This document shows positions 10,770-62,700 of a stretch of 64,000 nt of DNA, one piece after another (the stretch's first letter is position 1; each line of letters opens with the position of its first letter). The notes under the pieces are model-generated. The model worked only from the letters and a program-made list of their open reading frames with translations. It had not been told where the DNA came from and searched no databases. Source of the stretch: Punctularia strigosozonata HHB-11173 SS5. Its lineage: Eukaryota; Basidiomycota; Agaricomycetes; Corticiales; Punctulariaceae. The DNA lies in the NCBI RefSeq assembly GCF_000264995.1, contig NW_006767445.1, forward strand, positions 66,851 to 130,850, in the 5' to 3' direction. The translations under genes and the position numbers were made by a program.

Positions 10770-12331
10770 AGATATACGCATGCGTTTTGCCTCGTTCTCG
10801 GCGCTCGCTGATATCGAGTCTGACGGATCGCCGACGGTGAAGGCAAGGACTGCATATCGGATGATGTTTGGGATATTTTTCATATATACACGTAGGATCT
10901 CGTACGACGACTTGGAAATAGATATGGTCGTCGTCGCGCTTCCCGTCGGAGCACCGCTTGGCACAGGGGACTGACTATCCCAGACCGCCAAGCGTTCATG
11001 TCGAGGTTTCTTCGGCTGCTTGACTGGGAAGAGCGGGTTCCCAGCTAGCACGTGAAGACAAGGGAAGGAGGTTGGTCCAGTCAACATCGGTCGGCGGGTG
11101 TAGGAAGAGAAGAGGAGAAGAGAAGACTAACCCTCCTTCCTTCAGCGGCGTGCTCCAATCGCAGAGCTCGCATTTCCAGGTGTGTGAGGTGTTGCCGACG
11201 GGAGCGACGGAAACAAACAGGACGACTAGGGAGGAGGTGGTCTGTACGTTGTCGGTATTTGAGAGCCTGCGACGGAGCGATCTCGGGGCCTAGAAACGAA
11301 CCTTGGTTTGGAAGACGGCGGCTGTACAAGGGGGCAGAAGGGTATGAGCCAATGGCTTGCGCCGTGGAACACGCTGATTGTGGATGTGCTTACCTTGGTG
11401 ACATTTCGGGCAGACGCGCGGGGACTCGGATGGGTCGCCTGAGCGAGCGTCTTTGCTGACGGAGCCGACTGGGATAGCGGGTGAACACATGCGATCGTCG
11501 CCGCGGTGTTGGCCACGTACGAATGACCGGGGCAACTGGCACCGGCGGGCAAGGAGTCCGTTCAAACGAGGAGAATATTATACGCGTCAGGGTCGGACTC
11601 ACAGGTAGAGTTAGCGGACGATGGCATGATGGGAGGCAGCAAGGCGGTTATGTGGTATGGATTCGGCGTTCGTGATATATATCACGATGGGCCTTGGCAG
11701 CTTGTTCGGTCCAAGCACGCAGCAGCCAGTGTGACATGAGACTCGCCATAGACTGCGATCTACTGCGACCTGATCAGGCGAGGTTGACGATCCCACGCTG
11801 GGGTCGATCCGGCTCTTTCCGGGGTTTGCTCGCGTGGGCGCCGCGTGGCCGAGATTCGAATTCCAACCCCGCGCTCGTATGATGCAACCGCACCGTTTGC
11901 GCGCGCCACCTCCAACTGGCAACTGCAACACCAACTGCAACCCATGTGTTTTCGTGTCTCGCATCGCCTGCACGCCCCCGCAACTCCAAGGGGGCCCCCT
12001 GTCGATCACTTTATCGACGCTATTGGCCGAACCTTCGCAGCCAGTGCCGCCACCGCCGTCGACGTGACGTGCGTCATCCGACCGCCGCCGTATCGGTATT
12101 AGAACCCTCCAACCCCCGTCCGCGATGTCGTCTCATCGCTCTCTCCCTGTCTCACCGACGACGACGACGAGCAGCTCTCTGTAATCTAAGCCTAGTCTAA
12201 GTATACCACGCACGCACGGCCGACGCGCGCACCCCGCCTGCCCACCACGCCCCTGCCCGTCTCTCTATAAGTAAAGCACGCGCGGACGTACATCCCACAC
12301 GCACCGAGAAGTCGGCCCTTTCCCTCCCAGG
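10770..12331. other. Intergenic region and HAM1 promoter side
   Basis: No supported gene. Short GC-rich open frames overlap on both strands (11050-12010) without family motifs. A T-arm-like string near 11855 was examined as a tRNA and rejected. The last 250 bp become pyrimidine-rich, as expected for the HAM1-like gene's promoter. Confidence 0.4.
12266..12275 (+). promoter_or_regulatory. TATA-like box of the HAM1-like gene
   Basis: TATAAGTAAA lies 57 bp before the ATG at 12332, after a CT-rich tract. The distance fits a fungal core promoter. This is a sequence match only. Confidence 0.4.
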
Positions 12332-15300
12332 ATGTCTCTCCCCCCCGCGACGAAAGAGATCTCGGACCACCCCGCGAAGAACACCGTCACCGAGCCCGTC
12401 AACCGCCGCCAGAAGGAGGAAGATGTCAAGCGCAAGGTGATCCTCTACACACACACACCCCTTCGACAGGCGGAGATAGAGCAATGCTGACGCTTACGGG
12501 GGGTTTTTTTTTGTGGCAGTTGAAGCTCTACGGCGTGGTCCAAGCCCTGCGCGACGGCCGCATGCCGTCCAACACCCAAATCGACGCCGCGCTCAAACAC
12601 CTGCTCGCGAGCGAACCTGTGGACGTTGACGCTGTGCGTCTTCCTTTTCTTAAAAATTTTCATCCATATATGCGCCTTTCCCCTCCGTGGATATATGCGC
12701 CCGCGCGCCTTCTTATATCATTCTTTCGTATGTCGATTGATGTGCTCATCGTCGCAACGATCACACAGCTCAGCGTGGACGGCAAGAAGCTGATCGCCGA
12801 TGCGCGCGACATCATCGAGACCGCGCGCCTGCTCGTCTCCGACAAGAACGCGGACGAGCTCTTGCAGAACTTTATCTGGCACACGCGCGACGTCGACTAC
12901 GACCGCGTCAAGGTAAAACTTTCTCCCTTCCCTCCTCCCCCCGCTTATCCGAATTCGGCGGGCTGACGATGACGTGGCCCGATAGAAGGACCCGACGGAG
13001 AACGTCGACAAGGACGCGCTGCAGGAGAAGAACAAGCAGGCGCCGCAGCACCTCCGCACGCTGCTCTCGCTCGTGCTCACCAACTCGGAGGCGCGCAAGC
13101 TCCTGAGCGACTTTGCGCTCATCGGCCGCGACCTGCTCGCCAAGGGCGCTATCAAGGTAACTTGCTCGCGATTTCCTCCGTTTTTTTTTTTTTCATGTCG
13201 ACGTCGAATGCTGAGGATGGGGTCGGTTTTTGGCAGGCGGCGGAGCAGATCAGGCCGGACGAGGAGCGGCTGAGGCGCGTCGACGAGCCGGCGCCGGAGA
13301 ACGAGTTCGTGTCGAAGGACGGAGAAAGGCTCGGCCCGCACGACGGGACGCCGGTGCCGCAGGTACGGGTGCCTGGCACGGGCGTCACGGTCGAGCAGCA
13401 TCCGAAGGAGAAGTTGGGGGACGGTGCGTTTTTTTTCTCTTTCCAGATTCGCGGAGGAGCTGATGGGCGGATACGTGAGCAGGCGCCACGATCAAGACGG
13501 GAGATGGGGACGCGGTGAGCGGGGCGGAGGCAAAGGGGAAGGTGAGGCAGAAGGCGGGCGAGACGAAGGAGGAGGCGAGGGCGAACGCCGACGAGGTCGC
13601 GCAGTGAGCGTCTTATTTCTTTTATTTACGTGCGCGGACGCTGATGGAGCGAAACGATGCGTAGGACGACGAACGGCGTGCCGCAGACGGAGGATGAAGC
13701 CGAGGCCGGGAAGAAGACGCTCAAGAGCAGACTGTTTGGGTTCAAGGTGGGGTTTGGTCGTCAACGTGATCGTGGTTTTGCTTCTGCTTCCGTATCTGGT
13801 TCTGTTGCTGGCGCTGGACGCCAGCGAGGCGCTCCTTCTGCGTTCACGTTTCCGTTCAGACGCGCTTCGCGCTCCGTTTCGTCTTTTATTTCTGGTTCTG
13901 CGTCGATGGATTCTTCGGCTGTGGATATGTCGTCGCCTGGGTTTCGGGGGAGCCCCGCGGGCGGGTATGGAGTCGGCGTGTCCCCGTTCGGCACGCCGGG
14001 TGCGGGTGGGACGCCTCGCGAACACGACGGGGTGGATATCGGCACGAAGGAGTTCGTCGAGGGTGCGCTGGCTCGCGCCGGATTGTCGAGTTCGCCGCTG
14101 CATACCCCAGGAGAGGAGCGCATACGAGCGAGGGGGGGCCGCGGCCGGTTTTCGTACTTTGCGAGAGGCGCGAGAGGTCGGAACGGGACTAGGTCAAGGG
14201 AGGGCAGTCTTGGCCTGCCGCCTGCGTATACACCACCATCGAACGACGCCGAAAACGATACCGCCATGTCGCCAAGTTCCGCCGCCTCTCGAGCACGCGA
14301 ATCGTCACTCTTGTCTTCAGCCCCGTCGATCGGCGCTTCCGATCCACGCTCATCAAACACGCAACGCGCTTCGGTGCTGGCGCCGACCCTGCCGAAACCA
14401 CTGCCATCGCCCCCGCTGAGCGAGGTGCTCGAAGAGGGCTTTTGGACGCCGGCGCTGCCGCCCAAAGGCTCGCCCAACCCGCCGAGCGCGTTCCGGTTCG
14501 GGACGAGCCTGTCGTCGCCCGACCTGTCTTCGCGTTCGCCGCGCTCGATCCCGTCGTCGGGCTCGGAGGGCTACTTTTCGCCGCTGTCGTCCTTTGCTCG
14601 GCCCGGTGCGGAGGGGGAGGAAGGAGCGTCGCCGGAGACGTCGCGCTCGGCGTCCCCGTTCGTGCTCAGCTTTCCGCCGAGTTTTCCCAGTCCGGGGAGC
14701 TCGTCGAGCGAGACGGGTGCGTCGGCGGTGACCGTCAGGCAAGTCGACTACGCGGCGCGGTTGAGGGGCGGTGGGGATGATGAGGGCGTGGGGGAGAAGC
14801 GAATCAGCAGGGCGGTGGAGAAGGCGCTCGTGGACCAGCATCGGTCGCAGCTGTACGGAGCAGGCGATGAGAGCGGGGGCGAGGAGGAGGCATCCTCCGA
14901 TTCGGACGAAGAAGACGACGTGGCCGATCAGCGGGCGGACTTGATGTCCCGCCGCGGGACCATTGGGCACGTCGACGTTCCGGACAGCCCGACGCGCGAC
15001 CTGCTCGCGGAAGCCGCGGAACGCCGGATCGCGCTCTCGCCTCCCGCCAACGGGCGCCCTCTGCCTCCTATCCCACCGCCGTCTCGCGCGTCGTCGGTGC
15101 TGAGCTCGGCGTCGCGCCGATCGCCGCCGCCTCTGCCACCTAAAGACGCGCGCCGTCTTGCGGCGTCCTCCCGCTCGTCCTCGCCCGTGAGCCCGTCCGT
15201 CGTCCATCCGAGGGAAGGCACCCCGGCTCACCCCGGTCCTGCGCGACGTCCGAGCGGGCAGGCGCACCTCGGCTCGTTCACGCTGTCGGCTGGATCGCAG

Positions 15301-17605
15301 CGCGGGCGACTTTTGCGGGCGGAGACGTCGTATTTCGTCGCGCCCGTGGTGAACGGTCCGGACGCTTCTTCGACCTCGACTTCTTCTTCTTCTTCTTCAT
15401 CTTTAGCAGGGTCGCCTCCTTTGGACTCCACTTTGGCTGCTTCTCGCCCTTCTTCTTCAAGTTTTGCTTCAAATTCTCGTTTCGTTTCGTCTTTTATGGT
15501 GCTTCTTCCTTCCTATTCGTCCTTATTCTTTGCACCTTTGCCTCGCTCCCTTGTTTCGTTCGTTGGGATCCCCTGCTAACGTGTTGCTATTTCCCTTTGT
15601 TTCGTGACTTAGGACGCTGTGTCGAGCAAGGTTCCCGACGAACACAAGGAGAAGGTCCGCGAGCATCGCGACCGCGCCAGGGAGTTCTTCACGGAAGAGT
15701 ATTTCCCCGAGGAGAGGCGCGATCAGTTCATCTTCCGATTGAAGAAGGTTCGTCTGTCGCCCTGTACGAACCTCGCGTGTCGCTTATCCTGGTGGGGTCG
15801 ATGATCGGACAGGTGGTTATCGAGTGTCAGAAACACAAGGACTACCAGGAGTCGATCCGGTGGTTGATCGGCTATGTGGAAGACTACGCGAACCATGGGA
15901 TCGGCGTCGCCAAGACCGGCAAGGAATCTACTGGACAGTTGAAGGAGGTGAGATCGCATGTGCGCAGTGAGGAGAATTTGACGTTGACTAGCCTCGGTCT
16001 TCCAGGACGGGTCGCTTCAGCAGGCCACTACTGAGCTCCGCACGCTCTTGGAGCGGTTCGCGAACAACCAGAAGATGACCCCGATCTTCGATGCTGTCAA
16101 TGCGCTCGTTCAGGACTCGAAGAACGACGAAGAGCTCAAGGGGTGGTTCAAGCGCGTCGATGCGTACTTGCGTAAGGTGTGTGGTGTTCTTGATGAGGCG
16201 TGGGTTGTCATTGAGCCCGCTACAAGGTACTGCTGGAAGCCGGCTACGTCATTCAGCAGGAGTCCACGGACGACGCGAACGCGTTGAAGGAAGACGGGCG
16301 CCGGTTCTACGACGACAAGTACAAGCAGCACTTTGACCACTTGTTCAGGAACATTGGTGACTTCTTCAAGGCGATGGGCGATGATCCCCTGAACAAGAGG
16401 TAACACTGCTCGTCCCGCGGTTCCCTAACGGTGACTCACGCACAGTACAGGTTCGGGCAAGACTGGGCGAGCCTGACGAAGGATCTGCTTTTCGACAGCG
16501 ACGGCAGCCTGAAGTTCAAACCGCACTTGTGGCGCGATATCCGTACCGTTATCGCTCCGGCCCTCGTGGATCAGGTGCGTTAGCTTTCGATTCAAGGCAT
16601 CGACATTGTGGTCACGATGCGACACGTCATCCCTTCCAGGTCGGCTACATCCCCATCCCGCGCGTGGAGTATACGGACGCGCAGTTCGATATGATCATCG
16701 AGAACTTGACCCTTTCGGGCCGCAATCTGCTCCCAAACATCATTGCCATAGAGACGGATAATTTCCTCAAGTTTAGCCCGTACGAGAAGATCAAGGATGA
16801 GCATCATCACGAGTACGTCCAGCTACTACACAGTATGAACGATATCACTGACGGCTGTCCACTAGGCTCACCATCACACTTGCTCAAATCCAGGCCGACA
16901 TGCGCGATGTCGCCTTCTGGTTCCGCAAGAAGAGCGGGTTCCCCAAGCTCCAAGACTCTGGTCTGGCCGATGTCCTCCTCGGTGGCGAAGGCTTGACCGT
17001 GACCGTCCACCTCGTCTCCGCTGACAAGGACCCGAGCTCGGTGTTCAAGGTCAAGAACGTCGCCGTCAAGGTCGACACCTTGAAGTTCTCGATCCGCGAC
17101 TCGAAGCACGATTTGCTGTACAAGACGCTCAGGCCGCTCGCGACCGGGTTGGTGAAGAAACAGATACAGAAGGCGATCGCGGACGCCATCACGACCGGGC
17201 TGGAGTACGTCGACGGGCAGCTCGTCGGCGTGCGTGACCGCATGAGCGAGGCGAAGGCCTCTGACGGCACTAGTCGCAGGGAGGTCCTCAAGCAGGTGCG
17301 TCTGCTTTTGTCACGGATACGAGGCGGCCGCCTGACCTCATGCGTCGTACAGATGTTCCAGGATAAGAAGCAGACCGCCAAAGCGGAAGCTCACAAGGAG
17401 AAGGGCTCCAAATTCCAGGTCGTATCCAAGCGCGATTCGGTGCTTCTTCCAAACCAGGGATCCCCTGCCGGATGGATCAACCGCGTGCAGGAGCGAGAGG
17501 AGGCCGCGTCGAGCGGCAAAGACTGGCGTTCGGACGCGTAGGTCACTGTCCTGCATATCTGAGGACGATCGCTTACCAATGCTTGGCAGGTTTGATGTTC
17601 TGTGA
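12332..17605 (+). CDS. HAM1-like protein (hyphal anastomosis / BPI-like lipid-binding fold)
   Basis: Starts MSLPPATKEISDHP at 12332 (ATG after CCCAGG). The N-terminal domain runs LKLYGVVQALRDGRMPSN, IETARLLVSDKNADELLQNF, SEARKLLSDFALIGRDLLA. A charged linker (IKTGDGDAVSGAEAKGK, ETKEEARANADEVAQ) follows, then SRLFGFK at 13740. The C-terminal part resumes at 15613 with DAVSSKVPDEHKEKVREH, WLIGYVEDYANHG, LWRDIRTVIAPALVDQVGYIPIPR (16525-16665), ENLTLSGRNLLPN, ADMRDVAFWFRKK, and ends SDAFDVL, the TGA at 17603 being reached by splicing 17539 to 17590. These are the HAM1-like N- and C-terminal domains (Pfam families linked to Neurospora HAM hyphal fusion genes); the fold resembles tubular lipid-binding proteins and a role at membranes is inferred. 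At least fourteen introns. A continuous 534-codon segment (13747-15348) lies where a single intron would otherwise run; see the separate entry. Confidence 0.85.
13747..15348 (+). other. 534-codon in-frame segment inside the HAM1-like gene (exitron or extra exon)
   Basis: From the end of the SRLFGFK exon (13746) the frame stays open to a TAA at 15577, with no stop for over 600 codons. The region 13747-15348 has G/C-rich third positions and encodes a disordered Ser/Pro/Gly-rich chain with SPxF, PPPLPPK-type and acidic (SDSDEEDD) stretches. At 15349 composition turns T-rich and intron-like, with donor GTGAAC after GTG, a branch site CTAAC at 15576-15580 and acceptor TTAG at 15612. Using donor 15349 the segment adds exactly 534 codons in phase 0. 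Using the weak donor GTGGGG at 13747 it is removed as part of a 1,866-nt intron, also phase 0. Both options keep the frame, which is what an exitron looks like. Other introns here are 50-110 nt. A nested independent gene is less likely, as there is no separate promoter or terminator. Confidence 0.6.
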
Positions 17606-17951: not shown

Positions 17952-20900
17952 TTAGGACCGTGTTCCTGAGAGGCCTCGAACGAGCCGGGTGATACTGGGT
18001 CTGCGGCCTCGACCCTGGGAACCGCGCTGTCGTTGTTGATCTCTGATTAAATCGCTGGGTTGAAAATTAGCAAAATACGCAAGGCGGAGTGGAGTTAACC
18101 ATTCACCTCAAAGGGCGATAATAGTCCATCCATTTCGAGTTCATCAATGTGTCAACATGTCGATCCATCACTTCTTTAAGCTTCTCCTGGATTGGTTGTC
18201 GTATGGTGTCCATGACGGGGAATTTGTGGCGGCTTCCCAGTGAGGTTTCGAGGGCTGTCCGTATATCAGCGGACATCTGGTATGGCGGACTCAGTACGAA
18301 CCTCGAGCAGTTTCACCGACGGCCATGAGACGCGGAAGGTGCAACTCGTCGGCCTTCTGGTTTATCACGCCCATGTGCGCCGCCAAGTACGAGCTTACTC
18401 GGACTATAATAAACTATATCAGCAGCCTTCACTGACGATGCGCAATACGCCACTCACCAAGATGGGGTATCGTCGGTTTTGTCGCAGTCAGCAATGCGTC
18501 GATATCCCTCGAAGTTGACACGTAGTCTCCATAGAAGTTAGTGACGTAAGTCTGATTCATATGCTGTGTTATCAACCACTGGCGCCATCGGTCGTGAGCA
18601 AAGATGACCCACTTCAGGGATGCTGTAGAAAGCAGCAATCAGCGTCATTTTCAGAGAGTTGACGATCGCCCCCGCGGTAAAGTAGTCGCCATGATCGAAG
18701 CATTGCTGGAGTTCATGGATGAGCCGGTTTCGATGCTTGATATGAGCAACTGTACTCGCCTTGGCCACCTGGAACCATCGCGTGCATGCCTTGCAAGCTG
18801 CGTCTGGATCCCTCAGAGAAACAATGGACTCGACCACAAGGATTGTGGTGCAGTTGAAAAGGAAAGCCAAGCTCGACCGCGCACGCCATGTTGCTTCCAA
18901 TGCAGCGCGATAGGATAAGGGCAAGATAGGCTTGAACGTTTCGGTGGTCACGTCGGTCCCAAGGCCGAACACCGCCATCAAGGGTGTTGCCGATATCGAG
19001 TGCCAATACTCGGACGCAATGAGAGTCATTTGATGCGCCAATGCAAGCCCCTTCTTGTCTTCGTCGAATTGGAGGATGTTAAAAGCTGGTGTCTCCAGGG
19101 CCATGGATGAAGCAGCGGAGACGCTATCTATGCCGAGTTGACCCTGGGAGGCATTGCTGACGTGCGACGGATCGAGCGCATAGCTGTCTCGGAGAGCTTC
19201 GCGAATGGTTGTGTCTACGCGTTGTAGATTCTCGATCAGTTCCTTTTGCTGGGGACGAATCCGCCTCCCCTCCTGACCATGTACCTCCGGGCATTGCGCT
19301 TTATGGCGAACGAGGGTGATCCAATGTCTGAGGTGCGGCATGGCACTATTTTCCGCCCGGTCTGCGGACTCGAGGCATTTAGGCACCTTTGTCCAACAAA
19401 GTGGCCAATCGCGTTCGAGGTACCACCAACGTCCAATCCATAAATTGAGCAGCTTCGCAACGACTCCGCGGAGGGCCCAGGACTCTTCCGGTCCGGCGTA
19501 GTTCGCTCTCGTGCGCCTATGCAACGTAGCGTCCTCTACGGATTTGGCCTTGGCCGTGGCCTTGATTAGACGAAGCGGAATGTCGGGTCTCTGTCCCTTG
19601 ACCTCCGACAAATTTGGATATATATTTTCAAATTCATCACAGCAGGCCGTGGTCATTAACGCCATCGAACGTTCGTACTCCTTTTCGAGGGCAATTGCGA
19701 GCGAGGCAGCATCACGAGTGGAGATGATGCCGAGAAAGAAGTCTTCGATGTCTTTGTCACTGTCGCAGTGCTTGCGTCCGAGTTGTCCGAGTTCCGTCAG
19801 CGCGTTGTGGAGATCGACGCCTACAGATGGATATCGATTCCACCGGCGCTCAGCTCCCGCTGTGGTACAATTGCCATCCAGCGATGCAGTCCGACGTATC
19901 GCGCTCAGCGTGTTACGGATGACACCAGCGCCACGATCGTGACTCTGGGATCGGCCTGGTGGACGGTAGCGGGTCATGCTTCGCCCACGGGGTTTGATGA
20001 GCTTCGACGAGCTATGGTGGGCTCGTCTGACGCCGGATGATGGACCATGAAGTGCCCCGGGAATATTGATGCGAACGTGACTGCCCGTGTCGGCCGACTG
20101 GATGGGGTTCACTGAAAACTTGGAAGAGCGTTCCCCACGGATGGCAATGTTGGATGCAGTACGCTCTGCGCGAGTCGGGGGCGAAAACACTGAGTGGTGG
20201 GTGCCCTCGATGGAGACCGGATCTTTTCGAAATGGATCCCGATCGTGCAACCGTACCCACGATTCCACTTGGTTAAATAGTCAACCTCATCAAATAGGAT
20301 CCGCGATGAAGGACTGCTCACCGGCATCGCGTTTGAGTGCGGCCCATTGCGCATCTCCTTGACCTTCGTCGTCGCTATCGGATAAATTCGGTGGTTCGTG
20401 ATCGCCGATAGGCAATTGGTTGCTATATGACGAAGACGTGGGTTCGACCTCTTTCGCTCCAGGTGGCGCAGGCAGACTAGAGGCTGCAAGAGGGCGTTCC
20501 AGGAAAGGCACAAACTTTCGCTTGCTTGGATCCGCCTTCGCCGCTTCAACGCCATCTGGAGAGCCTACGTCCCGCAGGGCTCGGGTTGATACAGCCGTTC
20601 TCTGCCGGCGCGACGGTATGAATACATAAGACGCGTCGTCGATCAACGTATCGGAACCGGATCCTGACCCCGACCCGGAGGTCTCACTTCGATAGGACGA
20701 TGGGCCTTCATCTGAAGCCGATATAGAAGACGCTTCGACGTCGGCCGGAACGTCTGGTACCTTACCGTTTCGAGCTTCGAAATCGGCGGGGGATGAAGGA
20801 TATAAGGCATGCATCATAGAGGCGCCTTCCGGTGTAATGCGGGCCATGGTCAGTGTGCCATCCTCAGCGAGGACCAACCCGCCTGGGCGGGGGCCACGAG

Positions 20901-23524
20901 CCTTCGCGGACCGGGGGATAGGCATGGGGCGGGGTGACGTAGAAGCACGCTTGGATTTCCCGTGCGCACGAACGCTGGAAGACATCCCTCGTCCTCTGGA
21001 CCTGGATCGCTTCGTGGTGGGGGAGGGTGGCTTGGGGGCTTCCTCCGTGTCGTTGCCATCGTCATTGCGAGTAGCTAACCCCATCATTTCTGCGGCGGGC
21101 GAAGGGAGCGGTGGTAGCTCAGAAGGAGAGACCTTGGCAGTAGGCGGCCGACTGCGAGAGCGCGCTAGCCTCACAGGGGGACTCCCATCGGCGTCCGCCT
21201 TCGTTGGGTAAGAAGCGAGGTGAGGGTTGGCAAACTTGTTTCGAGCTTCTTTGATGATACTGGCTGCGGTGCGGCGAGAAAGGTTCGCTGGCGTAGATGC
21301 AGAGGTGAGCGACGCAGGGTCGCTCGCGTTGGATGAGCTCGACCTTCCCTGAGACTCCTCGGCACTTCCCTTGCTTGGTTTCGCTGCAGGGGGCTCTCCA
21401 TGAGACAGTTTGAGGCTTGCATGCGGTTCTCGAATGCGGGGCTTCTGGCCGGCGATGCTTGCCGTCGTGGAGCGCGGTGTGAAGACGTGCGCCGAAGTCG
21501 ATCCCGTACGAATGGAACTCAAACTCTCGCAGGATTCTCGATGGCGTAGCTCCCTCACGATCCACTCCACCAAGGATAGGGAGGGATCAGGAGATGAGAC
21601 CTCGGACTTCATGGGAACGGCTGTTCCCGCCGCGAGGGTATCCGAGGTTGAACGAGGGACCGCCGGGGGAGGCTTAGAGGAGGAATTATCCGCCGATACA
21701 GGTCGCATCACCGCGGCCGCTGGTGTTTTCGACTCCGTGGGAGTGACGGACGAGTCCGAGTTGGAGCGCTTCATCCACAGCAGGGGAGCAACCCCTCCAA
21801 AGCCACGACCTGAGGTAGTCGGCGTTGGCTTTGTTTGCGTGAGCGTCACCGAGGTGTCGGAGCTCGAGCGCGACATCGAGGAGGGCAACTTGCTAGAGCT
21901 TCGACCCGCCGCGTACGGAGGAGACAGCAGCGCCGATGACGACTTCAATACGGTGGGCGTAGCTGATGAGTCCGAGCTCGCTCGAGACATTGACGATGTC
22001 GCTTTGCTTGAGCTTCGACCCGCAGAGGACGGGGTACGCATCGGTGTCGATCTCGTATACACGGAGGTCGGGTGGTTTTGGGAGACCGACGAGTGGGCGT
22101 TGCTGACGCTCGATTTGCCCGTGGTAGCAACGGCAGATGGAGGAGGACGCGCAGACGCCAACATAGGTTTGGATGGCGTGGGGAGAGCAGAACCTAGGAC
22201 AAATGAATTCGGGCTGGATCGCGGCACCGGCGGTAAAGGCTTACCGGACGAAGCAGCGACAGCGGACACGGACGTAGACTTTGAGGATCCACACGACATC
22301 GAGCCAATACCCGAGGAGTTCGAGTGGGCGCGCGATACCGGGGGAGAAGGTTTCTTGACTGGGAGAGCTGCTACGGGCGTAGAACGTATCGACGACGACA
22401 TCAACTTCGAGATCGTAGACGGCACCGTATCCATACTCGATCCCGATACGGATGGTCGGAGCGTCGCGGCGCTTGCGATGCTCAGCGTCGCAGCAGGGCG
22501 TTTCGACGTCGACATAGACGGTGTGACGGATGATAACGAGCTCGCGGTCGACGAGTCGGAGTTCGAGCGAGAGACGGGCGGGGAGGGTTTATCCGCCTTC
22601 CTTGCGGCCGATGCCCCTGCCGAGGACGAGGTACGATTCGGTGTTGCAGTAATCGTACGCATTGAGACCGTACTTGACGACGCGGCCGACGATCGCGGCT
22701 TGCTCGCCCCAGGGGTAGGCGGCGAGGGTGCTACAATGTAATGACGCGTCGTCGTCGTCGTCGTCGAGTTGGTCCTCGCCATTCTGGATCCCGGGCGCGG
22801 CGGTGTCGATTTGGGCGGGACCGGAGGCGGGACGAGAGGCGGGGAAGAACGCGTCGACGCCGATCTCGCTGTGGCCGGCATCGCGGGAACGGGAGGCACA
22901 GACGGAGTGCGAGTAGCGGTGGACGATTTGGATCTTGTTGGGGTGACCGGCCGCGAGCGCGTAGGAACGCTCGCACTCGCGCTCGCGTGTGTGTGTGCGT
23001 GCGAGATCGATGGACGCCGTTTGCTCGCAGTGGATGGACCTTGAGCGATGCCGGCCGAGAGAACGGGAGGAACGGCAGGCGTGGCTTGACCAGGACGAGT
23101 GGAAGTAGACCGCATGCTTGCCTGCGACGCCTCCGACCGAGGTTTGGTCGTGATTGCACGCGTCTGAGGGACTGGAACCGGAGCTGGAGCTGGACAACGT
23201 GCGTCAGGGTTGAGTGAGTACAGCAGGTGGCAAGGACCTACCTGAGCCGCGTGAATCGACAGGGGCGGCAAGCGGCTTCGCTGGAGGCGTAGGCGCCGAC
23301 TTAGTTGGAAGAGACAAAGAGACCGGGGTGGCTTTGGACGACGTAGACGGGTTGACGAGCGCGGACGCGTCGGGCTTCGCGTTGGCGCGTACGGAAGCGT
23401 TCGATGCAGCGATGAGAGAAGCCTTTGCCCTGCCTGTCGTGCTGTGGTTGGTATCGACGCGTCCGGACGCGCTGGGAGGAGGGTTGGGAGGTATGCTCGG
23501 TAGTTTGAGTGGTTTGGGCGGCAT
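17952..23524 (-). CDS. RasGEF-domain protein with long Ser/Pro-rich N-terminus
   Basis: Starts MPPKPLKLPSIPPNPPP at 23524. Exon 1 ends at about 23242 and joins near 23190 to a 2.9-kb exon encoding about 950 disordered residues; a 56-nt intron (from about 20321) then leads to ESWVRLHDRDP. The N-terminal half carries a degenerate repeat (SSKPPPxVxRSxSDSSxTPT-like). The C-terminal half has a REM-like segment (LRGVVAKLLNLWIGRWW, near 19480) and a divergent Ras guanine-nucleotide exchange domain: ILQFDEDKKGLALAHQMTLI (19075), FNCTTILVVESIV (18870), CFDHGDYFTAGAIVNSL (18690), NFYGDYVSTSRD (18530), TATKPTIPHL (18475), MGVINQKADEL. It ends in a basic tail GRGRRPSITRLVRGLSGTRS at the TAA 17952. About 1,750 residues. 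By family it activates a Ras/Rap-type GTPase. Divergence from the core motifs makes the target uncertain. Confidence 0.75.
21400..22750 (-). repeat. Degenerate protein repeat in the RasGEF N-terminus
   Basis: At least seven units spaced 30-55 residues apart share a Lys-Pro-Pro-rich entry and an Arg-x-x-Ser core: KPSPPVSRSNSDSS, KPSPPVSRAHSNSS, KPLPPVPRSSPNS, ATSSMSRASSDSS, LPSSMSRSSSDTS, LWMKRSNSDSS, KPPPAVPRSTSDT. The R-x-x-S cores fit basophilic kinase sites and the PPxVxR parts fit SH3-type ligands. Function is inferred from composition only. Confidence 0.6.
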
Positions 23525-41411: not shown

Positions 41412-42951
41412 TCACCAACCCCTGGCCTTGAAGTCCGCGAGGCTGTCCCTGGTGGAGGCTTCGAGGCTCGTGTACTTAATTCCCAAAATACGATCTGCTT
41501 TCGACACGTCGTAGCGCACGGGGTACACGACGCCCGGAGCCTTGCCTGCGCCAGGTTTGCCCTTGGGGAGGTTATCGTACAGTGGCGGCGTGAGCGCGTT
41601 GGCGGCGTCGACTACAGGAACAGTAGGCTTTAGCAGCGATAACAGATTTCCAAGAGAGAGACGCGTACCCCAGTCTTGCCACTTGAAAGGCCCTTGAATG
41701 AGAAGATAAAATTACGTCAGATTCATAAATCACGCGGGCCTTGCAGAGGCGAGGATGAAGGACGCACCTGGAGTCACGATGAAACGCTCGCCGCCGGCGG
41801 CCTCCTTCTCGATCGCTAGCCGATGCGCCTCCGCAAGGTCGCGCACGTCTACCCAGGCATTTCCAAGTGTCGCCAGAGTCTCCGCGTCCTTCGTGCCCTT
41901 GACCACCGTATTGTACCAATCGAGCACGGAGGTGTTCAACGCGTCAGGCGACGACACTTCATGGATGACAGGCTGTCGGTGACATATGTGATCAGGCCCA
42001 TCGTCTAACTCATATCAATACGCTAGACGTACCCCAAAGACCTGAATTACTCTCTGTTAGCAACTGCGTGGGACCGATACTATGATGAATACTCACGTAT
42101 GGCGGGTTCAGAACCACGAGGTCCCAGGCCACGGATCCCTTGTGCTTGTTGTAAAGGTCCCAGGCGGCTGGAATTATTGATCCAATTGGCCTTCGCCTCT
42201 ACCACGAATACTAGCAGCTTACTTACCTTTCTCAGCGAGCACCTTCGATGCACAGTACTTGTGCAATGGAGCAGCGTTTCGTCCCTTCTCTTCGATCTCT
42301 CTGGGACTCGTCTCGTTGAAATCCTTCTCGGTATAGATTGTGGGCTGTGGCAGGAAGTTCTGGACGGAAGCGCAAGACGAAGTGACGACAATCCTTTTAA
42401 CGTCCTTCCTGGATTTGTGAAATGGCTCTCATTAATGAGCTGAGCGATATGAGCCGATGCGCCATCGTACCCGTATTTCAGAACGCTTTCGATCACAGAT
42501 GTGGTGCCCTTGATGGCTGGAATGAGGTATTCCTAGTAAGAGAGAGCATGAGTTCAAACCGTCTCGAAGACCCGGGGCACATGAAAACGCACATCTGGAT
42601 GATCACCCGCAAAGTGGAAGGGTGAAGCCGTGTGCTCAACAGCATCCACGCCCTGCACGGCGCTATCAAAGGCCCCCTCCTAAACGACGCGTTAGGATTA
42701 TCACAGGCGCGGATTTGCATCACGGAATGCGACGGGCATCGCACCTTGGTGATATCTTCCACTACAACAAATTCAAGCTTGCCCGCGTATTTGTCCGCGA
42801 ACAACTTCTTCAAGTGTGCTGACTTGGCTTCGGAGCGGACCGTCCCGCGGACAGTATAGCCGTGCTCGAGAAGGTTCTTGACGACCCAGACTGCGATGTA
42901 GCCATTCGCGCCAGTAACGAGGACTTTGCTTCCAGGGAGGACTGCGGGCAT
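41412..42951 (-). CDS. NAD(P)-dependent epimerase/reductase A (extended SDR, Gre2/DFR-like)
   Basis: Starts [20 protein letters not shown] at 42951; the glycine-rich TGANGYIA is the nucleotide-binding motif. Then [44 protein letters not shown] (42640), [29 protein letters not shown] (catalytic Ser region, 42390), [10 protein letters not shown] (YxxxK, 42240), [28 protein letters not shown] (41860), ending [11 protein letters not shown] at 41412. About 340 residues, cytosolic. By family it reduces aldehydes or ketones (cinnamyl/dihydroflavonol-type or methylglyoxal-type). The substrate is unknown; in wood-rot fungi aromatic aldehydes are a reasonable guess. A TATA box (TATAAAAC, 43003-43010) lies 52 bp upstream. 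Intron positions match those of reductase B. Confidence 0.88.
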
Positions 42952-44034
42952 GGTTGGGAACACGTTCAAAGTAGATGCAAGGGTTTGCGAGCAACCGGGA
43001 GAGTTTTATACGCGCAGCTGATTCATCGCGGAGCGTTGATAAGCAAGTTGCGGGGAACGCTTCCACGAAAGTGGGTCGAATGCTGAGTACCGGGAGGAGG
43101 CAGCCAGAGCGTGGGACATCGAGGAGCCAGAACGTATCGCGATTTTCTCAACTCGCGTCCGGTTTGTCAAGATGCGTTCCCTTGACCGATGTGGGCACTG
43201 GATTGGGGACCACCCACTTGATGGACGGCGATAGAGGCTTTCTATCGCGTCACGAGACTGCGATGCAACATCGATGGCACCCTGGGCAAAGTCACGGACA
43301 ATGTCAGCGTTTAAGACGCGCGACATACGAGGTGTCTCAGGCTGCGTACCGCGTGAGTAGTACTGTGTCATGTGTTCGGCATGAGGGTAGTAGTGTCAGT
43401 GGGAGTATTGCCATGACTCAGGGCAACTGTTGAGCAGGTTTTTTCAGAGCAACGAAGAAGTCAGATTGTATGCCGGTACAAGAGGGGTACAGATGTCCCC
43501 ACAAGAGGTACGAGGGGCGGCGTACATAGTCATGCAGTGCCCCTGGGGAAGATACCCAGGTGTGGGATTGACCGAAGCGACCCACGTCTGTTCCAATGTT
43601 CGAGGTTCAATGTTCAACGTTCAACATCCGTGTTGGCCCACGAGGATTCGTCTGCTTCACCTTTGCCTCGTACGCGTCGGGACGTCACGGTCGAGGGCTC
43701 TGGAAGGCGCGTGGCCACGCGGCGGGGGCGCCCCACGTGCAAGCGGCATCTCAACCCCAAATCGGCAAGATCGTTTCCCCATCTGGGTTGTCCATAGCTT
43801 GCCCCCAGCCCGGCGCGAGTTTTTCACCTTCAAGGTCGACAGCCTTGCATGATGTCGCATTTGCTCTGACGTCGGCCTGGAAGTATTGAAATCGTGCTTA
43901 TGAACCACTGTAATATGCGGCATCTCAATCGGTAAAGAACATATAGCGATCGTGCATTGTGCGGAATACTGTTCGCGTCGGACACGTACTATACTACATG
44001 CCTGTTTGATACCGAGAAGTACAAAGAGGTGGAC
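42952..44034. other. Spacer between tandem reductase genes
   Basis: 1.08 kb. It contains the promoter of reductase A (TATAAAAC on the - strand at 43003-43010) and the 3' end of reductase B. GC-rich open frames around 43500-43900 show no family motif. Confidence 0.4.
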
Positions 44035-59700: not shown

Positions 59701-62700
59701 CAGAGACAGCCCTTCGTCTTGACCTTTGTAGCATGCCACAATTCTCCGGTAAAGGGGACCGTACTGGGCGAACGTGGCCAATTGCTCATAGAATCCTATG
59801 GCAGGGTCAGCTGGCGAGTAGTCCTGAGCGTGAAATGTAAACTCGCCTTCCATCTTGAACTCGGAGCAGCGGTTGATGATAGCGGCCACGTCCACGGCCG
59901 GTGCTTCGCCGCATGGCGTCGTGGACATGTAGCCTCCCGCATGAAGACGCCTCGTCTGAAAATGTCGTCAGCTTACTGGATGTGGCCGTGGAGCAAGACA
60001 CAGACCTGACTATAAGACGACTCGTCGTTATCCGATAGCCGGGAGCGGACTTCCCAAAGGTGACCATCAATATCCATGTCGATGTACAGCAGCTTCGAGG
60101 ACAGGATCGGCAGCATGGAGTGGAAGCGCACGTCGCGCAACTCGCGGGCACCAGCCTCAAATGCCTGCGTGAACTTTGTCAGCATAATGCGGAACGATGT
60201 ACCTTGAGAGAACTGTACCATTTCGAGGAAACCGGCGGCGGGCATGATGGGCTCCTCGCGAATGATATGCTGGGCGAGATCCGGGTGGGTCTCCGCGCTC
60301 ACGCGGAGTCGCTTTCCGGTCAAAGGGGCGTGGCGCGCTTTCCTCGACCTGGCCACCATCTTCGAGTCTTCCGGATACAGCGGAATGCGTTTGGGCGCGA
60401 ATGGGTAGGCAGGCAAGGACAGGTCAATGGACGCAAACGAGCGGCCGGTCAAGGCCTCCATGTCGATAGAGTTGATACCGAGCACGGAAAGCTGGCCGAC
60501 GCAGCTCAAGAACGAAGACGCCTCGTCGTACTCCTTGATGATCTTCGACCGGCGCATGGGGCAGACGATGAAGCTCGGGTCGACGCCCGCGCTGATGACG
60601 TACGACGACAGTGCGGGGTGTGGGCTGATCTCGACGAACTTCGCGGTGGGGTACTTGTCGAGGATGGCGGCGATGCCCCGGTCGAACAGCACGGGCTGGC
60701 GGGTGTTCTGCCAGTAGTAGTCCGCCGTGATGGCGCCCCCGTCCCAGAACGCGCCCGTCATGGAGGAGCAGATCTGCACCTGCGTTTGAGGCGAGCACGC
60801 GCCACCATAGCGGGAGAACACGTCCTCCACCTGCTTGACGTACTGCTCCTTGCAGACCTCCATGAGCGACGAGTGCACCGGGATGTGCGTCCTTATCCTG
60901 CGTGCGAAGATGTCCATGCCCTGCGCGACCTCCACCGCCTGGTCGACGTACTTCACGATCCCCGCGAGCGTGACCGCCTCCGGTGCATTGTAGCACGCGA
61001 TCTCGAGCTTGCCCCGCGGGTCTGCGCCGGCCAAGACGCGCGCGATGATCTCGTTCGCCTGGTCCGGGCCGCACGACACCGCGGCCATGGTGCCGTCGCA
61101 GCTCGCGGCGACGGCCATCGCGACGCCGCGGGCGATCGAGAGCTCGACCGCCATCTCGCGCGAGCACGCCTTGGCGGCGTAGAGCATCGTCGTCTCGCCC
61201 GCGCTGTGGCCGATGACGATGTCCGGCCGGACGCCGACGCTCTCGAGCAGGTCGACGAGCGCGACCTGGCAGACGGCGAGGGCGGGGAGAGTGAGCTCGA
61301 TTGGCCAGGTGTCGGGGAGCGGGTCGCGTCCGGCGGCGTCGCCGAAGAGGCCAATGTCGTCGATCAGGGACAGGCCGGTGACCTTCTTGTAGGTCTGGTC
61401 CATGGCGAGGACGCTTCCACGGAAAACGGGGTACTCATTGAAAAGCTGCTTCCCCACTGTGATGCAACCTCTCAGTTTACTGTTTTGCTCCGGATATGAG
61501 GGATCTGACGTACTATTCAGGTGTTGTGGGCCTTGGCCGGTCATGACGTATACAATGGGCGACCTCGCACGCTGTACGAACGTTGGAGCCGCGAAGGGAA
61601 CCTTGACGGAGCCGTCGGGAAGACGGACGGAGAACGACCTCCACAGCATCTGGCGGGACCGGCGAGCGCACAGAGCCGCGAGAGCCTGGACGTCCGAGCT
61701 CTGTTCCGCGAGCTTGGCCACATCCGTCGCGATCTGCGCCGCAGATCGTGGCGTCAGGCCTCCGGTGAGGAGCAGCGTCGGGGTGCGAGCCTTAGCGGGC
61801 ACGCGGTAGGTGGGCGGCGGGGTCGGAGGCGCTTCGAGCACGGCGTGGCCGTTCGCGCCGCCGATGCCCGAACTGCAGATCGAGATCAGGGGAGGTTTGC
61901 CGTTCATCGGGCTCGGGAGGTGCGCGACGTCCGTCGGCACGCGGAGGCGGTACTCGTCCCAGTGGATGGACGGGTTCGGGTTGACGAGGTTGATGCTCGG
62001 CGGGATGACCTTGTGCTTGAAGATCGAGCACACTTTCGAGAGCGATGCGAGGAAGGCGGTGATCTCGAGATGGCTGCAAATACGCGTATCAATAAGACCA
62101 AGCTCGTCGGCGAGGATGGGACAGTGGGGAACGACTTACCCGATGTTGGCTTTGACGCTGCCAACGAGGAGGTCGTCGTCCCGCTTGAAGGCGTCCCCGA
62201 CCCAGTTTGCCTCGATCGGATCGCCGGCCGCGGTGCCCGTCGCGTGCATCTCGACGTAGCTCACCTCAGAAGGCGATCGGGTCGTGCTCTGGTACGCGCG
62301 CCGCATCGCATCGCGCTGGCCTTCCGCGACCGGCGCGTACGCGGGTGCGGCCGAGCCGTTCGCGCTGATCCCGGTCCCCAAGATCTGGTGGCCCACGACG
62401 TCAGCATTTTAGATGGATGACAGGGAGAAAGAAAGAGGGACCCACCGTGGCGTGGATCTTGTCGCCGTCTCGGATCGCGTCCTCGAGAAGCTTGATAACC
62501 ACGACCGCACCGCCTTCACCGCGCGAGAACCTGCGAGAGTGAGTTAGTTAGCGTTGCGGCTCTGTAAACGATGATGGGCGGGCGGGGGCTCTTACCCATT
62601 AGCGGACGCATCAAACGGCTTGCACCGCCCGTCAGGGGAGAGAATGGATCCTTGACTATACTGGAACCACTCGACGAACCTAAACGGGTAGTTCAGTTTC

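What the first reader, a model, noticed from the sequence alone, without database searches (positions are those of the whole stretch)
13747..15348. A 534-codon exitron-like segment in a HAM1-like gene
Seen: the frame continues without a stop from a HAM1 exon through 13747-15348, with coding-type GC-rich third positions; a normal intron (donor 15349, branch CTAAC, acceptor 15612) then follows in phase 0. Skipping the whole piece from the weak donor GTGGGG at 13747 also keeps phase 0. Inference: alternative retention would switch a roughly 850-residue lipid-binding-fold protein to a version with a disordered Ser/Pro/acidic insert between its two HAM1 domains, possibly a regulatory arm for hyphal fusion. 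I know of no described case in this family.
Basis: partly seen in the sequence, partly recalled or inferred. Interest (0 to 1): 0.75.

Follow-up and report, generated by a model that had tools for sequence, protein, structure and literature searches.

The report
Long in-frame insert in HAM1-like gene
One of the HAM1-like genes of this fungus carries an extra, protein-coding-looking stretch of about 584 codons exactly where a related gene has a small intron, most likely an ordinary lengthened exon rather than a splicing switch.

Summary
The open frame is real: 13747-15348 has no stop in the frame of the upstream HAM1 exon (0 of 2000 shuffles stop-free) and shows codon periodicity. (1) The segment probably ends at 15498: periodicity persists to there and vanishes in 15499-15612, and donor 15499 outscores 15349, which scores below 18 of 18 reference donors. 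That gives 584 codons and a 114-nt intron. (2) Donor 13747 scores within the range of real donors. (3) The insertion lies inside Pfam HAM1_N, not between HAM1_N and HAM1_C. (4) It is not exitron-like: no acceptor ends the segment, so skipping would be alternative 5' splice-site choice. A paralogue has a 53-nt intron at the identical place and phase, so 13747 is probably the ancestral donor; the exon grew by a downstream donor shift, and phase-0 skipping is automatic. Best explanation: a constitutive, low-complexity Ser/Pro/Gly/Ala/Arg insert. Regulated alternative use is possible but unsupported. No RNA and no orthologues were available.

The parts
12332..13746 (+). HAM1-like gene, upstream exons 12332-12436, 12520-12633, 12769-12912, 12986-13156, 13237-13423, 13483-13603, 13665-13746
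   Evidence: Spliced frame open and HAM1_N E 3.2e-263; 7 of 7 of these exons show period-3 signal, 3 or fewer of 300 shuffles reaching it
13747..13752 (+). Probable ancestral 5' splice site AAG|GTGGGG, read through as Val-Gly in the long form
   Evidence: Donor score 4.95, within the leave-one-out range 2.3-10.1 of 18 reference donors; paralogue L004 has a 53-nt intron at the homologous place and phase
13747..15498 (+). In-frame exon extension of 1752 nt, 584 codons: low-complexity Ser/Pro/Gly/Ala/Arg-rich insert inside HAM1_N
   Evidence: Open frame; period-3 signal in the pieces tested; no Pfam match of the 534-aa form at E up to 1; found only at its own place in the own genome
13781..13904 (+). 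Left copy of a diverged direct repeat of about 125 nt at the segment ends, including exact 15-mer 13875-13889
   Evidence: Local alignment with 15380-15508 not reached in 1000 dinucleotide shuffles or, with the right side cut at 15498, in 3000 codon shuffles; exact 15-mer
15380..15508 (+). Right copy of that direct repeat, including exact 15-mer 15483-15497 and the CTT run 15380-15403
15499..15612 (+). Probable real intron, 114 nt: donor ATG|GTGCTT (phase 0), branch motif CTAAC at 15576, acceptor TTAG ending at 15612
   Evidence: Donor score 3.60 against 1.30 for 15349; only CTRAY motif in 13747-15612; no period-3 signal (292 of 300 shuffles at or above observed; 951 of 1000 for 15499-15576)
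15613..17541 (+). HAM1-like gene, downstream exons 15613-15747, 15813-15947, 16006-16176, 16227-16399, 16451-16574, 16640-16812, 16866-17295, 17353-17541 (rest of HAM1_N, and HAM1_C)

Best explanation
The gene 12332-17541 is a HAM1-like gene in which one ancestral short phase-0 intron lost the use of its old donor (13747) and now uses a donor about 1.75 kb downstream (probably 15499). The intervening DNA is translated as a 584-residue low-complexity insert rich in Ser, Pro, Gly, Ala and Arg. It lies within HAM1_N, just after a variable charged linker. In most or all transcripts the insert is included, because fungal splicing works mainly by intron definition and should pair the acceptor 15612 with the nearby donor (114 nt) rather than with one 1866 nt away. 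The product is then about 1401 residues: the two halves of HAM1_N joined by a long, probably disordered loop with SH3-ligand-like and S/T-P motifs. Shown: open frame, codon periodicity and its end at 15498, intron at the same position in a paralogue, intact HAM1 domains. Inferred: actual translation, constitutive use, disorder and any regulatory role.
For: No stop in 534 codons (0 of 2000 shuffles stop-free) or in the 1593-nt core (0 of 5000). Period-3 signal, shuffles reaching the observed value: 13747-13824, 0 of 1000; 13747-13889, 5 of 1000; 15404-15498 without the CTT run, 0 of 1000; core, 0 of 300; 15349-15498, 0 of 300; but 15499-15612, 292 of 300. Calibration on the same gene: 15 of 15 exons at 5/300 or fewer, 13 of 13 introns at 26/300 or more. 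Donor 15499 (3.60) is better than 15349 (1.30), and the only CTRAY motif lies at 15576. The paralogue L004 has a 53-nt intron at the same place and phase. The 13 other introns of this gene are 50-135 nt, so an 1866-nt intron would be far outside. PMC2397502 (passages seen) concludes that fungi splice mainly by intron definition, with cassette exons rare.
Against: The old donor 13747 is still in good shape (4.95, above 92.7% of GT sites in the window) and better than 15499; 15499 itself is at the weak end (two of the 18 leave-one-out scores are clearly lower) and ranks only 10th of 119 GT sites in 13700-15599. Codon choice hardly separates the frame: -0.040 bits per codon against -0.069 to -0.192 for the five others, shuffles -0.164 with sd 0.032; trained without the HAM1 exons the open frame scores -0.074 and three other frames score slightly better. 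Third-position GC is far below that of the HAM1 exons. The flanks 13747-13889 and 15349-15498 have mostly T-ending codons and their position pattern fits the core poorly or only partly (coherence -0.08 and 0.52). A charge-hydropathy calculation put the insert on the ordered side, against disorder, although 70% of its residues are in a disorder-promoting set. No orthologue and no RNA evidence.
Confidence: 0.6

Rival explanations
1. Regulated alternative 5' splice site: the two donors 13747 and 15499 compete for acceptor 15612, giving an 817-aa canonical form and a 1401-aa form with the low-complexity arm.
For: Donor 13747 is still functional-looking and outscores 15499 (4.95 against 3.60); both products are in frame, and HAM1_N and HAM1_C are found in the short form and in the 534-codon long form; the short form is the one that fits HAM1_N without interruption.
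Against: The in-frame skip is automatic given an ancestral phase-0 intron. It needs an 1866-nt intron in a gene whose 13 other introns are 50-135 nt. No transcript evidence.
Confidence: 0.2
2. The whole stretch 13747-15612 is a single long intron that is always removed. The open frame inside is a leftover or a captured coding fragment with no role in the HAM1 protein.
For: Short form matches HAM1_N over profile positions 1-629 of 630 in one stretch; the paralogue splices at the same place; donor 13747 scores well; the flanks are T-rich and A-poor; codon choice is weak.
Against: Stop-free frame in phase with the upstream exon (0 of 2000) and period-3 signal through 15498; length 1866 nt; no source copy found elsewhere in the genome.
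Confidence: 0.13
3. A nested independent gene or insertion: a coding core of 1593 nt (13890-15482) was inserted into a T-rich intron, flanked by a 15-nt target-site-like duplication, and has its own transcript or has been captured as an exon.
For: Exact 15-mer at 13875-13889 and 15483-15497 (0 of 400 dinucleotide shuffles of the flanks; 2 of 2000 codon shuffles reach that length); composition break between flanks and core.
Against: The flanks themselves have codon periodicity, so they look like exon; no other copy found in the genome, no Pfam match, no poly(A) tract at either edge seen by eye; the similarity of the ends extends over about 125 nt, more than a target-site duplication.
Confidence: 0.05

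Closest known systems
Exitrons (introns inside protein-coding exons; definition recalled, papers seen only as a search listing)
   Same: A stop-free multiple-of-three segment whose removal keeps the frame
   Different: No acceptor at the segment's end; the alternative product would use the ordinary downstream acceptor, so it is a competing-donor case. Alternative use is not shown.
HAM1-like / HAM-13 family (Pfam HAM1_N PF19343, HAM1_C PF14613; Neurospora HAM-13, Cryptococcus Ham1)
   Same: HAM1_N and HAM1_C above cut-off; closest paralogue 64% identical
   Different: 584-codon insert inside HAM1_N that the two comparable HAM1_N loci of the same genome do not show. That HAM-13 and Ham1 carry these Pfam domains was not tested here.
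Exon extension by donor shift into intron-derived or inserted DNA, giving lineage-specific low-complexity inserts in conserved proteins (general knowledge)
   Same: Ancestral intron position kept, acceptor kept, donor moved, frame kept, disorder-prone residue make-up
   Different: Unusually large step (1752 nt) for a gene with other introns of 50-135 nt; step-by-step origin not reconstructed

Membership tests
HAM1-like family | HAM1_N domain above Pfam cut-off over its length | tested here: met
   Short form E 3.2e-263, profile 1-629 of 630; long form with 534 codons in 2 stretches, E 8.5e-255
HAM1-like family | HAM1_C domain above Pfam cut-off | tested here: met
   111.7 bits, cut-off 27, profile 1-149 of 162
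HAM1-like family | Role in cell communication and fusion | not testable with these tools
   Only family literature: passages in PMC11218459 and PMC6455062
Exitron | Both splice sites lie inside one protein-coding exon | tested here: not met
   No AG acceptor ends the segment at 15348 or 15498 (sequence); the removal considered uses acceptor 15612, beyond the intron 15499-15612
Exitron | Stop-free and a multiple of three | tested here: met
   1602 or 1752 nt, no stop
Exitron | Both retained and spliced transcripts occur | not testable with these tools
   No RNA data
Constitutive coding exon extension | Codon periodicity to a clear end at a usable donor | tested here: met
   Periodic to 15498, absent in 15499-15612; donor 15499 scores 3.60, low but within the range of real donors
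Constitutive coding exon extension | Codon choice like that of the organism's genes | tested here: inconclusive
   Open frame slightly best of six or not best, depending on the training set
Constitutive coding exon extension | Protein-level conservation among orthologues | not tested
   No relative reached: scans of viral contigs and of genome contigs, collections of viral and of bacterial and archaeal sequence, found none; the genome is said to have no held relatives

The most novel reading that the evidence does not exclude
Donor competition at 13747 and 15499 is developmentally regulated and toggles a 584-residue arm, carrying SH3-ligand-like and MAPK-type S/T-P motifs, into the middle of HAM1_N. 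It would couple a HAM-13-type, MAK-2-associated protein to other partners only in certain hyphal states.
Probability: 0.12. Interest if true: 0.6.

Novelty: new variant of a known kind. Interest (0 to 1): 0.3.

Why it matters
If the insert is translated, a conserved fungal family protein linked to cell fusion gained a large flexible insert inside its main domain through a simple donor shift, with the pre-shift intron still visible in a paralogue of the same genome. That makes it a compact test case for how low-complexity inserts arise in fungi. If both donors are used, it would be a very long-range alternative 5' splice site in a gene of short introns.

Tried and rejected
Rejected: donor 15349 as the normal exit (scores below 18 of 18 reference donors, and periodicity continues beyond it). 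An extra small intron 13747-13824 was considered because the AG at 13824 is in phase, but the stretch is periodic (0 of 1000 shuffles) and there is no CTRAY motif before 15576. The missing motif alone is weak evidence, since only 10 of the 18 reference introns have CTRAY. An acceptor at 13859 was considered by eye and dropped because the frame it opens stops at 14190-14192. An antisense gene filling the segment was rejected: 5, 5 and 10 stops in the three reverse frames, longest reverse open run 331 codons; a spliced antisense gene was not tested. A multi-copy origin was not supported: only the segment itself was found in the own genome by protein and by DNA (both searches score only the best candidates). 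A reading of the end repeat as in-frame throughout was dropped: the offset is 1599 at its left start and 1608 at the shared 15-mer, both multiples of three, but most offsets between them and the one after (1604) are not (alignment).

Led nowhere: synonymous codon model (little power for Ser/Pro-rich sequence); solved-structure search with the short form, 0 of 177635 sequences at E up to 1; viral-contig scans with the HAM1_C part and with the insert, and one genome-contig scan with the two-sequence alignment, no confirmed relatives; literature on exitrons and fungi (listing only), on HAM1-like names (listing only, largely unrelated inosine-triphosphatase and plant-virus Ham1 papers), and on Agaricomycete splicing (two papers listed, one of them then searched for passages). 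Structure prediction of the insert was never accepted because the queue was full. L005 (C8 copy) and L016 were fetched; L005 was compared only by tblastn and L016 was not analysed.

The donor model rests on 18 introns only (13 of this gene, 5 of the paralogue), from gene models made here without transcripts; the intron in question was left out of training. In one search my last exon ended at 17562 by mistake; it was set to 17541 from then on.
Full report
The gene. The window holds a HAM1-like gene on the + strand, 12332-17541. Joining the exons and skipping 13747-15612 gives an 817-residue protein that matches Pfam HAM1_N over profile positions 1-629 of 630 (residues 14-667, E 3.2e-263) and HAM1_C over 1-149 of 162 (residues 679-817, E 4.8e-32). 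All exon borders are my models, without transcripts.

The observation. The frame of the exon 13665-13746 stays open through 13747-15348 and on to 15576. In 2000 dinucleotide-preserving shuffles of 13747-15348 none was stop-free in that frame, nor in any forward frame (mean 8.0 stops in the frame; observed 0, 6 and 6). For the 1593-nt core 13890-15482, 0 of 5000 were stop-free (mean 7.6). The T-rich ends alone would often be open by chance (51% for 13747-13889, 86% for 15483-15576), so the surprise lies in the GC-rich core.

Is it coding? Codon choice scores -0.040 bits per codon in the open frame, against -0.069 to -0.192 in the five other frames; trained on the HAM1 exons alone it is -0.017 against -0.135 to -0.200, but trained without them it is -0.074 and three of the other five frames score slightly higher. 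This is little separation. The 1077-codon open frame nearby, 20293-23523 on the - strand, also Ser/Pro-rich, scores -0.138 (GC .557/.676/.608), so this kind of sequence gives little codon signal here. Period-3 power is clearer. In the HAM1 gene 15 of 15 exons were reached by 5 or fewer of 300 shuffles, and 13 of 13 introns by 26 or more of 300. Pieces of the segment: 13747-13824, 0 of 1000; 13747-13889, 5 of 1000 (2 of 300); 13825-13947, 4 of 1000; 15404-15498, which avoids the CTT run, 0 of 1000; core, 0 of 300; 15349-15498, 0 of 300. But 15499-15612 gives 292 of 300 and 15499-15576 gives 951 of 1000. Of two stretches taken as non-genic, one (42000-43600) gave 102 of 300 and the other (11000-12300, upstream of the gene) was itself somewhat periodic, 1 of 300. 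Sliding 300-nt pieces vary from 0.41 to 6.08 in power, so the signal is uneven. The position pattern of the left flank does not fit that of the core (coherence -0.08 in frame, 0.21 at best); that of 15349-15498 partly does (0.52 in frame, negative in the other two phases).

Where it ends. A donor matrix from 18 introns (13 of this gene, 5 of the paralogue) gives leave-one-out scores of 2.3 to 10.1 for real donors. 13747 (AAG|GTGGGG) scores 4.95, 15349 (GTG|GTGAAC) 1.30, and 15499 (ATG|GTGCTT), also phase 0, 3.60; among 119 GT sites in 13700-15599, 13747 ranks 6th, 15499 10th and 15349 20th. The only CTRAY motif in 13747-15612 is CTAAC at 15576; 10 of the 18 reference introns have CTRAY, so its presence helps and its absence elsewhere proves little. 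Donor score and periodicity agree that the intron is 15499-15612, 114 nt, and the coding segment 13747-15498, 1752 nt or 584 codons.

Where it sits. With the 534-codon insert the HAM1_N match splits in two, the best stretch starting at profile position 273. The site is thus inside HAM1_N and not between the two domains. It follows a charged stretch where the two paralogues differ and one has a 4-residue gap.

Origin. At least four loci of the own genome match HAM1_N (C13, the window; C2 near 1.827 Mb; C2 near 2.788 Mb; C8). The closest, L004 (64% identical), has a 53-nt intron at exactly this place and phase, VR|DQV against FK|DAV. A third (C2:2787214-2787942) matches profile 118-350 in one stop-free stretch of 243 codons, so it has no large insert there (not looked at further). 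The C8 copy was not matched across the site (its matches begin at profile position 320). So 0 of 2 comparable loci carry the insert. The intron position is probably older than the duplication; in the window gene the acceptor side was kept and the donor moved downstream. That skipping 13747-15612 keeps phase follows from this history and is no evidence for a switch. The segment was found nowhere else in the genome by protein or DNA search.

A repeat at the ends. 13781-13904 and 15380-15508 align with gaps (score 31.5; 0 of 1000 dinucleotide shuffles). With codons shuffled, and the right side cut at 15498, 0 of 3000 reach the observed 30.5 (null maximum 28.5). They share an exact 15-mer (13875-13889, 15483-15497); 0 of 400 dinucleotide shuffles but 2 of 2000 codon shuffles reach that length. 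The offset is a multiple of three at the left start (1599) and at the 15-mer (1608) but mostly not in between or after, so the repeat says little about frame. I read it as an old internal duplication or an insertion scar; the data do not decide.

What the insert looks like. The 584 residues are 20% Ser, 11% Pro, 11% Ala, 11% Gly, 10% Arg, with no Cys, and the 534-aa form has no Pfam match. It has 4 matches to [RK]xxPxxP (0.7% of residue shuffles reach this), 3 to PxxPx[RK] (4.5%) and 25 S/T-P pairs (0.5%); a 14-3-3-type pattern had none and PPxY one. The motif definitions are recalled, and five were tried, so they are leads only. The nearby Ser/Pro-rich frame shows similar proline motifs by eye. 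Charge-hydropathy put the insert on the ordered side (0.439 against a boundary of 0.418), a larger margin than for HAM1 residues 1-235 (0.421/0.418) or 309-817 (0.430/0.414), while residues 236-308 fell on the disordered side; residue make-up (70% disorder-promoting, 19% order-promoting, against 50-52% and 30-33% in the HAM1 parts outside 236-308) points the other way. Disorder is my expectation from the composition, not a result.

How it most likely works. Fungal introns are recognised mainly by intron definition and cassette exons are rare (PMC2397502, passages seen). The nearby donor 15499 should then win the acceptor 15612 over a donor 1866 nt away, and the insert should be present in most transcripts. 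Against this stands the well-preserved old donor, which leaves room for alternative use. In Cryptococcus neoformans 10.6% of genes have more than one transcript, by several routes (PMC3990503, passages seen), so alternative use is not implausible. Family function: Neurospora HAM-13 mutants have reduced germling communication and fusion, and HAM-13 came up in a search for MAK-2 interactors, the link being likely indirect (PMC6455062, passages); Cryptococcus Ham1 is palmitoylated and its loss gives more fusion products (PMC11218459, passages including part of the abstract). An arm that docks partners is an inference.

Comparison and novelty. The exitron definition (recalled) needs both splice sites within one coding exon; here no acceptor ends the segment. 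It works, if at all, like an alternative 5' splice site. My searches for HAM1-type names listed no paper whose title or shown abstract start is about such an insert; I saw only listings and the passages named. The find is a new variant of a known kind of event. Interest is modest unless RNA shows that both donors are used.

Noticed in passing
13781-13904 and 15380-15508: Diverged direct repeat of about 125 nt at both ends of the insert, with an exact shared 15-mer; origin (duplication or insertion scar) undecided.
   Followed up: partly
18541-23523, - strand: Two long adjacent open frames: 18541-20280 with a weak RasGEF match (E 4.5e-4, below Pfam's cut-off) and 20293-23523, 1077 codons, Ser/Pro-rich, no Pfam match; whether they form one gene was not tested.
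   Followed up: no
59976-62135, - strand: Polyketide-synthase-like piece (Acyl_transf_1, KAsynt_C_assoc) with a 486-codon open frame on the opposite strand at 60039-61496.
   Followed up: no
L016 (G000:C2:2785500-2790000): A further HAM1_N locus that matches profile 118-350 in one stop-free stretch, so without a large insert at the site discussed; fetched but not analysed.
   Followed up: no
11000-12300: Stretch upstream of the HAM1-like gene with some period-3 signal (1 of 300 shuffles reach it) and overlapping open frames; an unmodelled exon may lie here.
   Followed up: no
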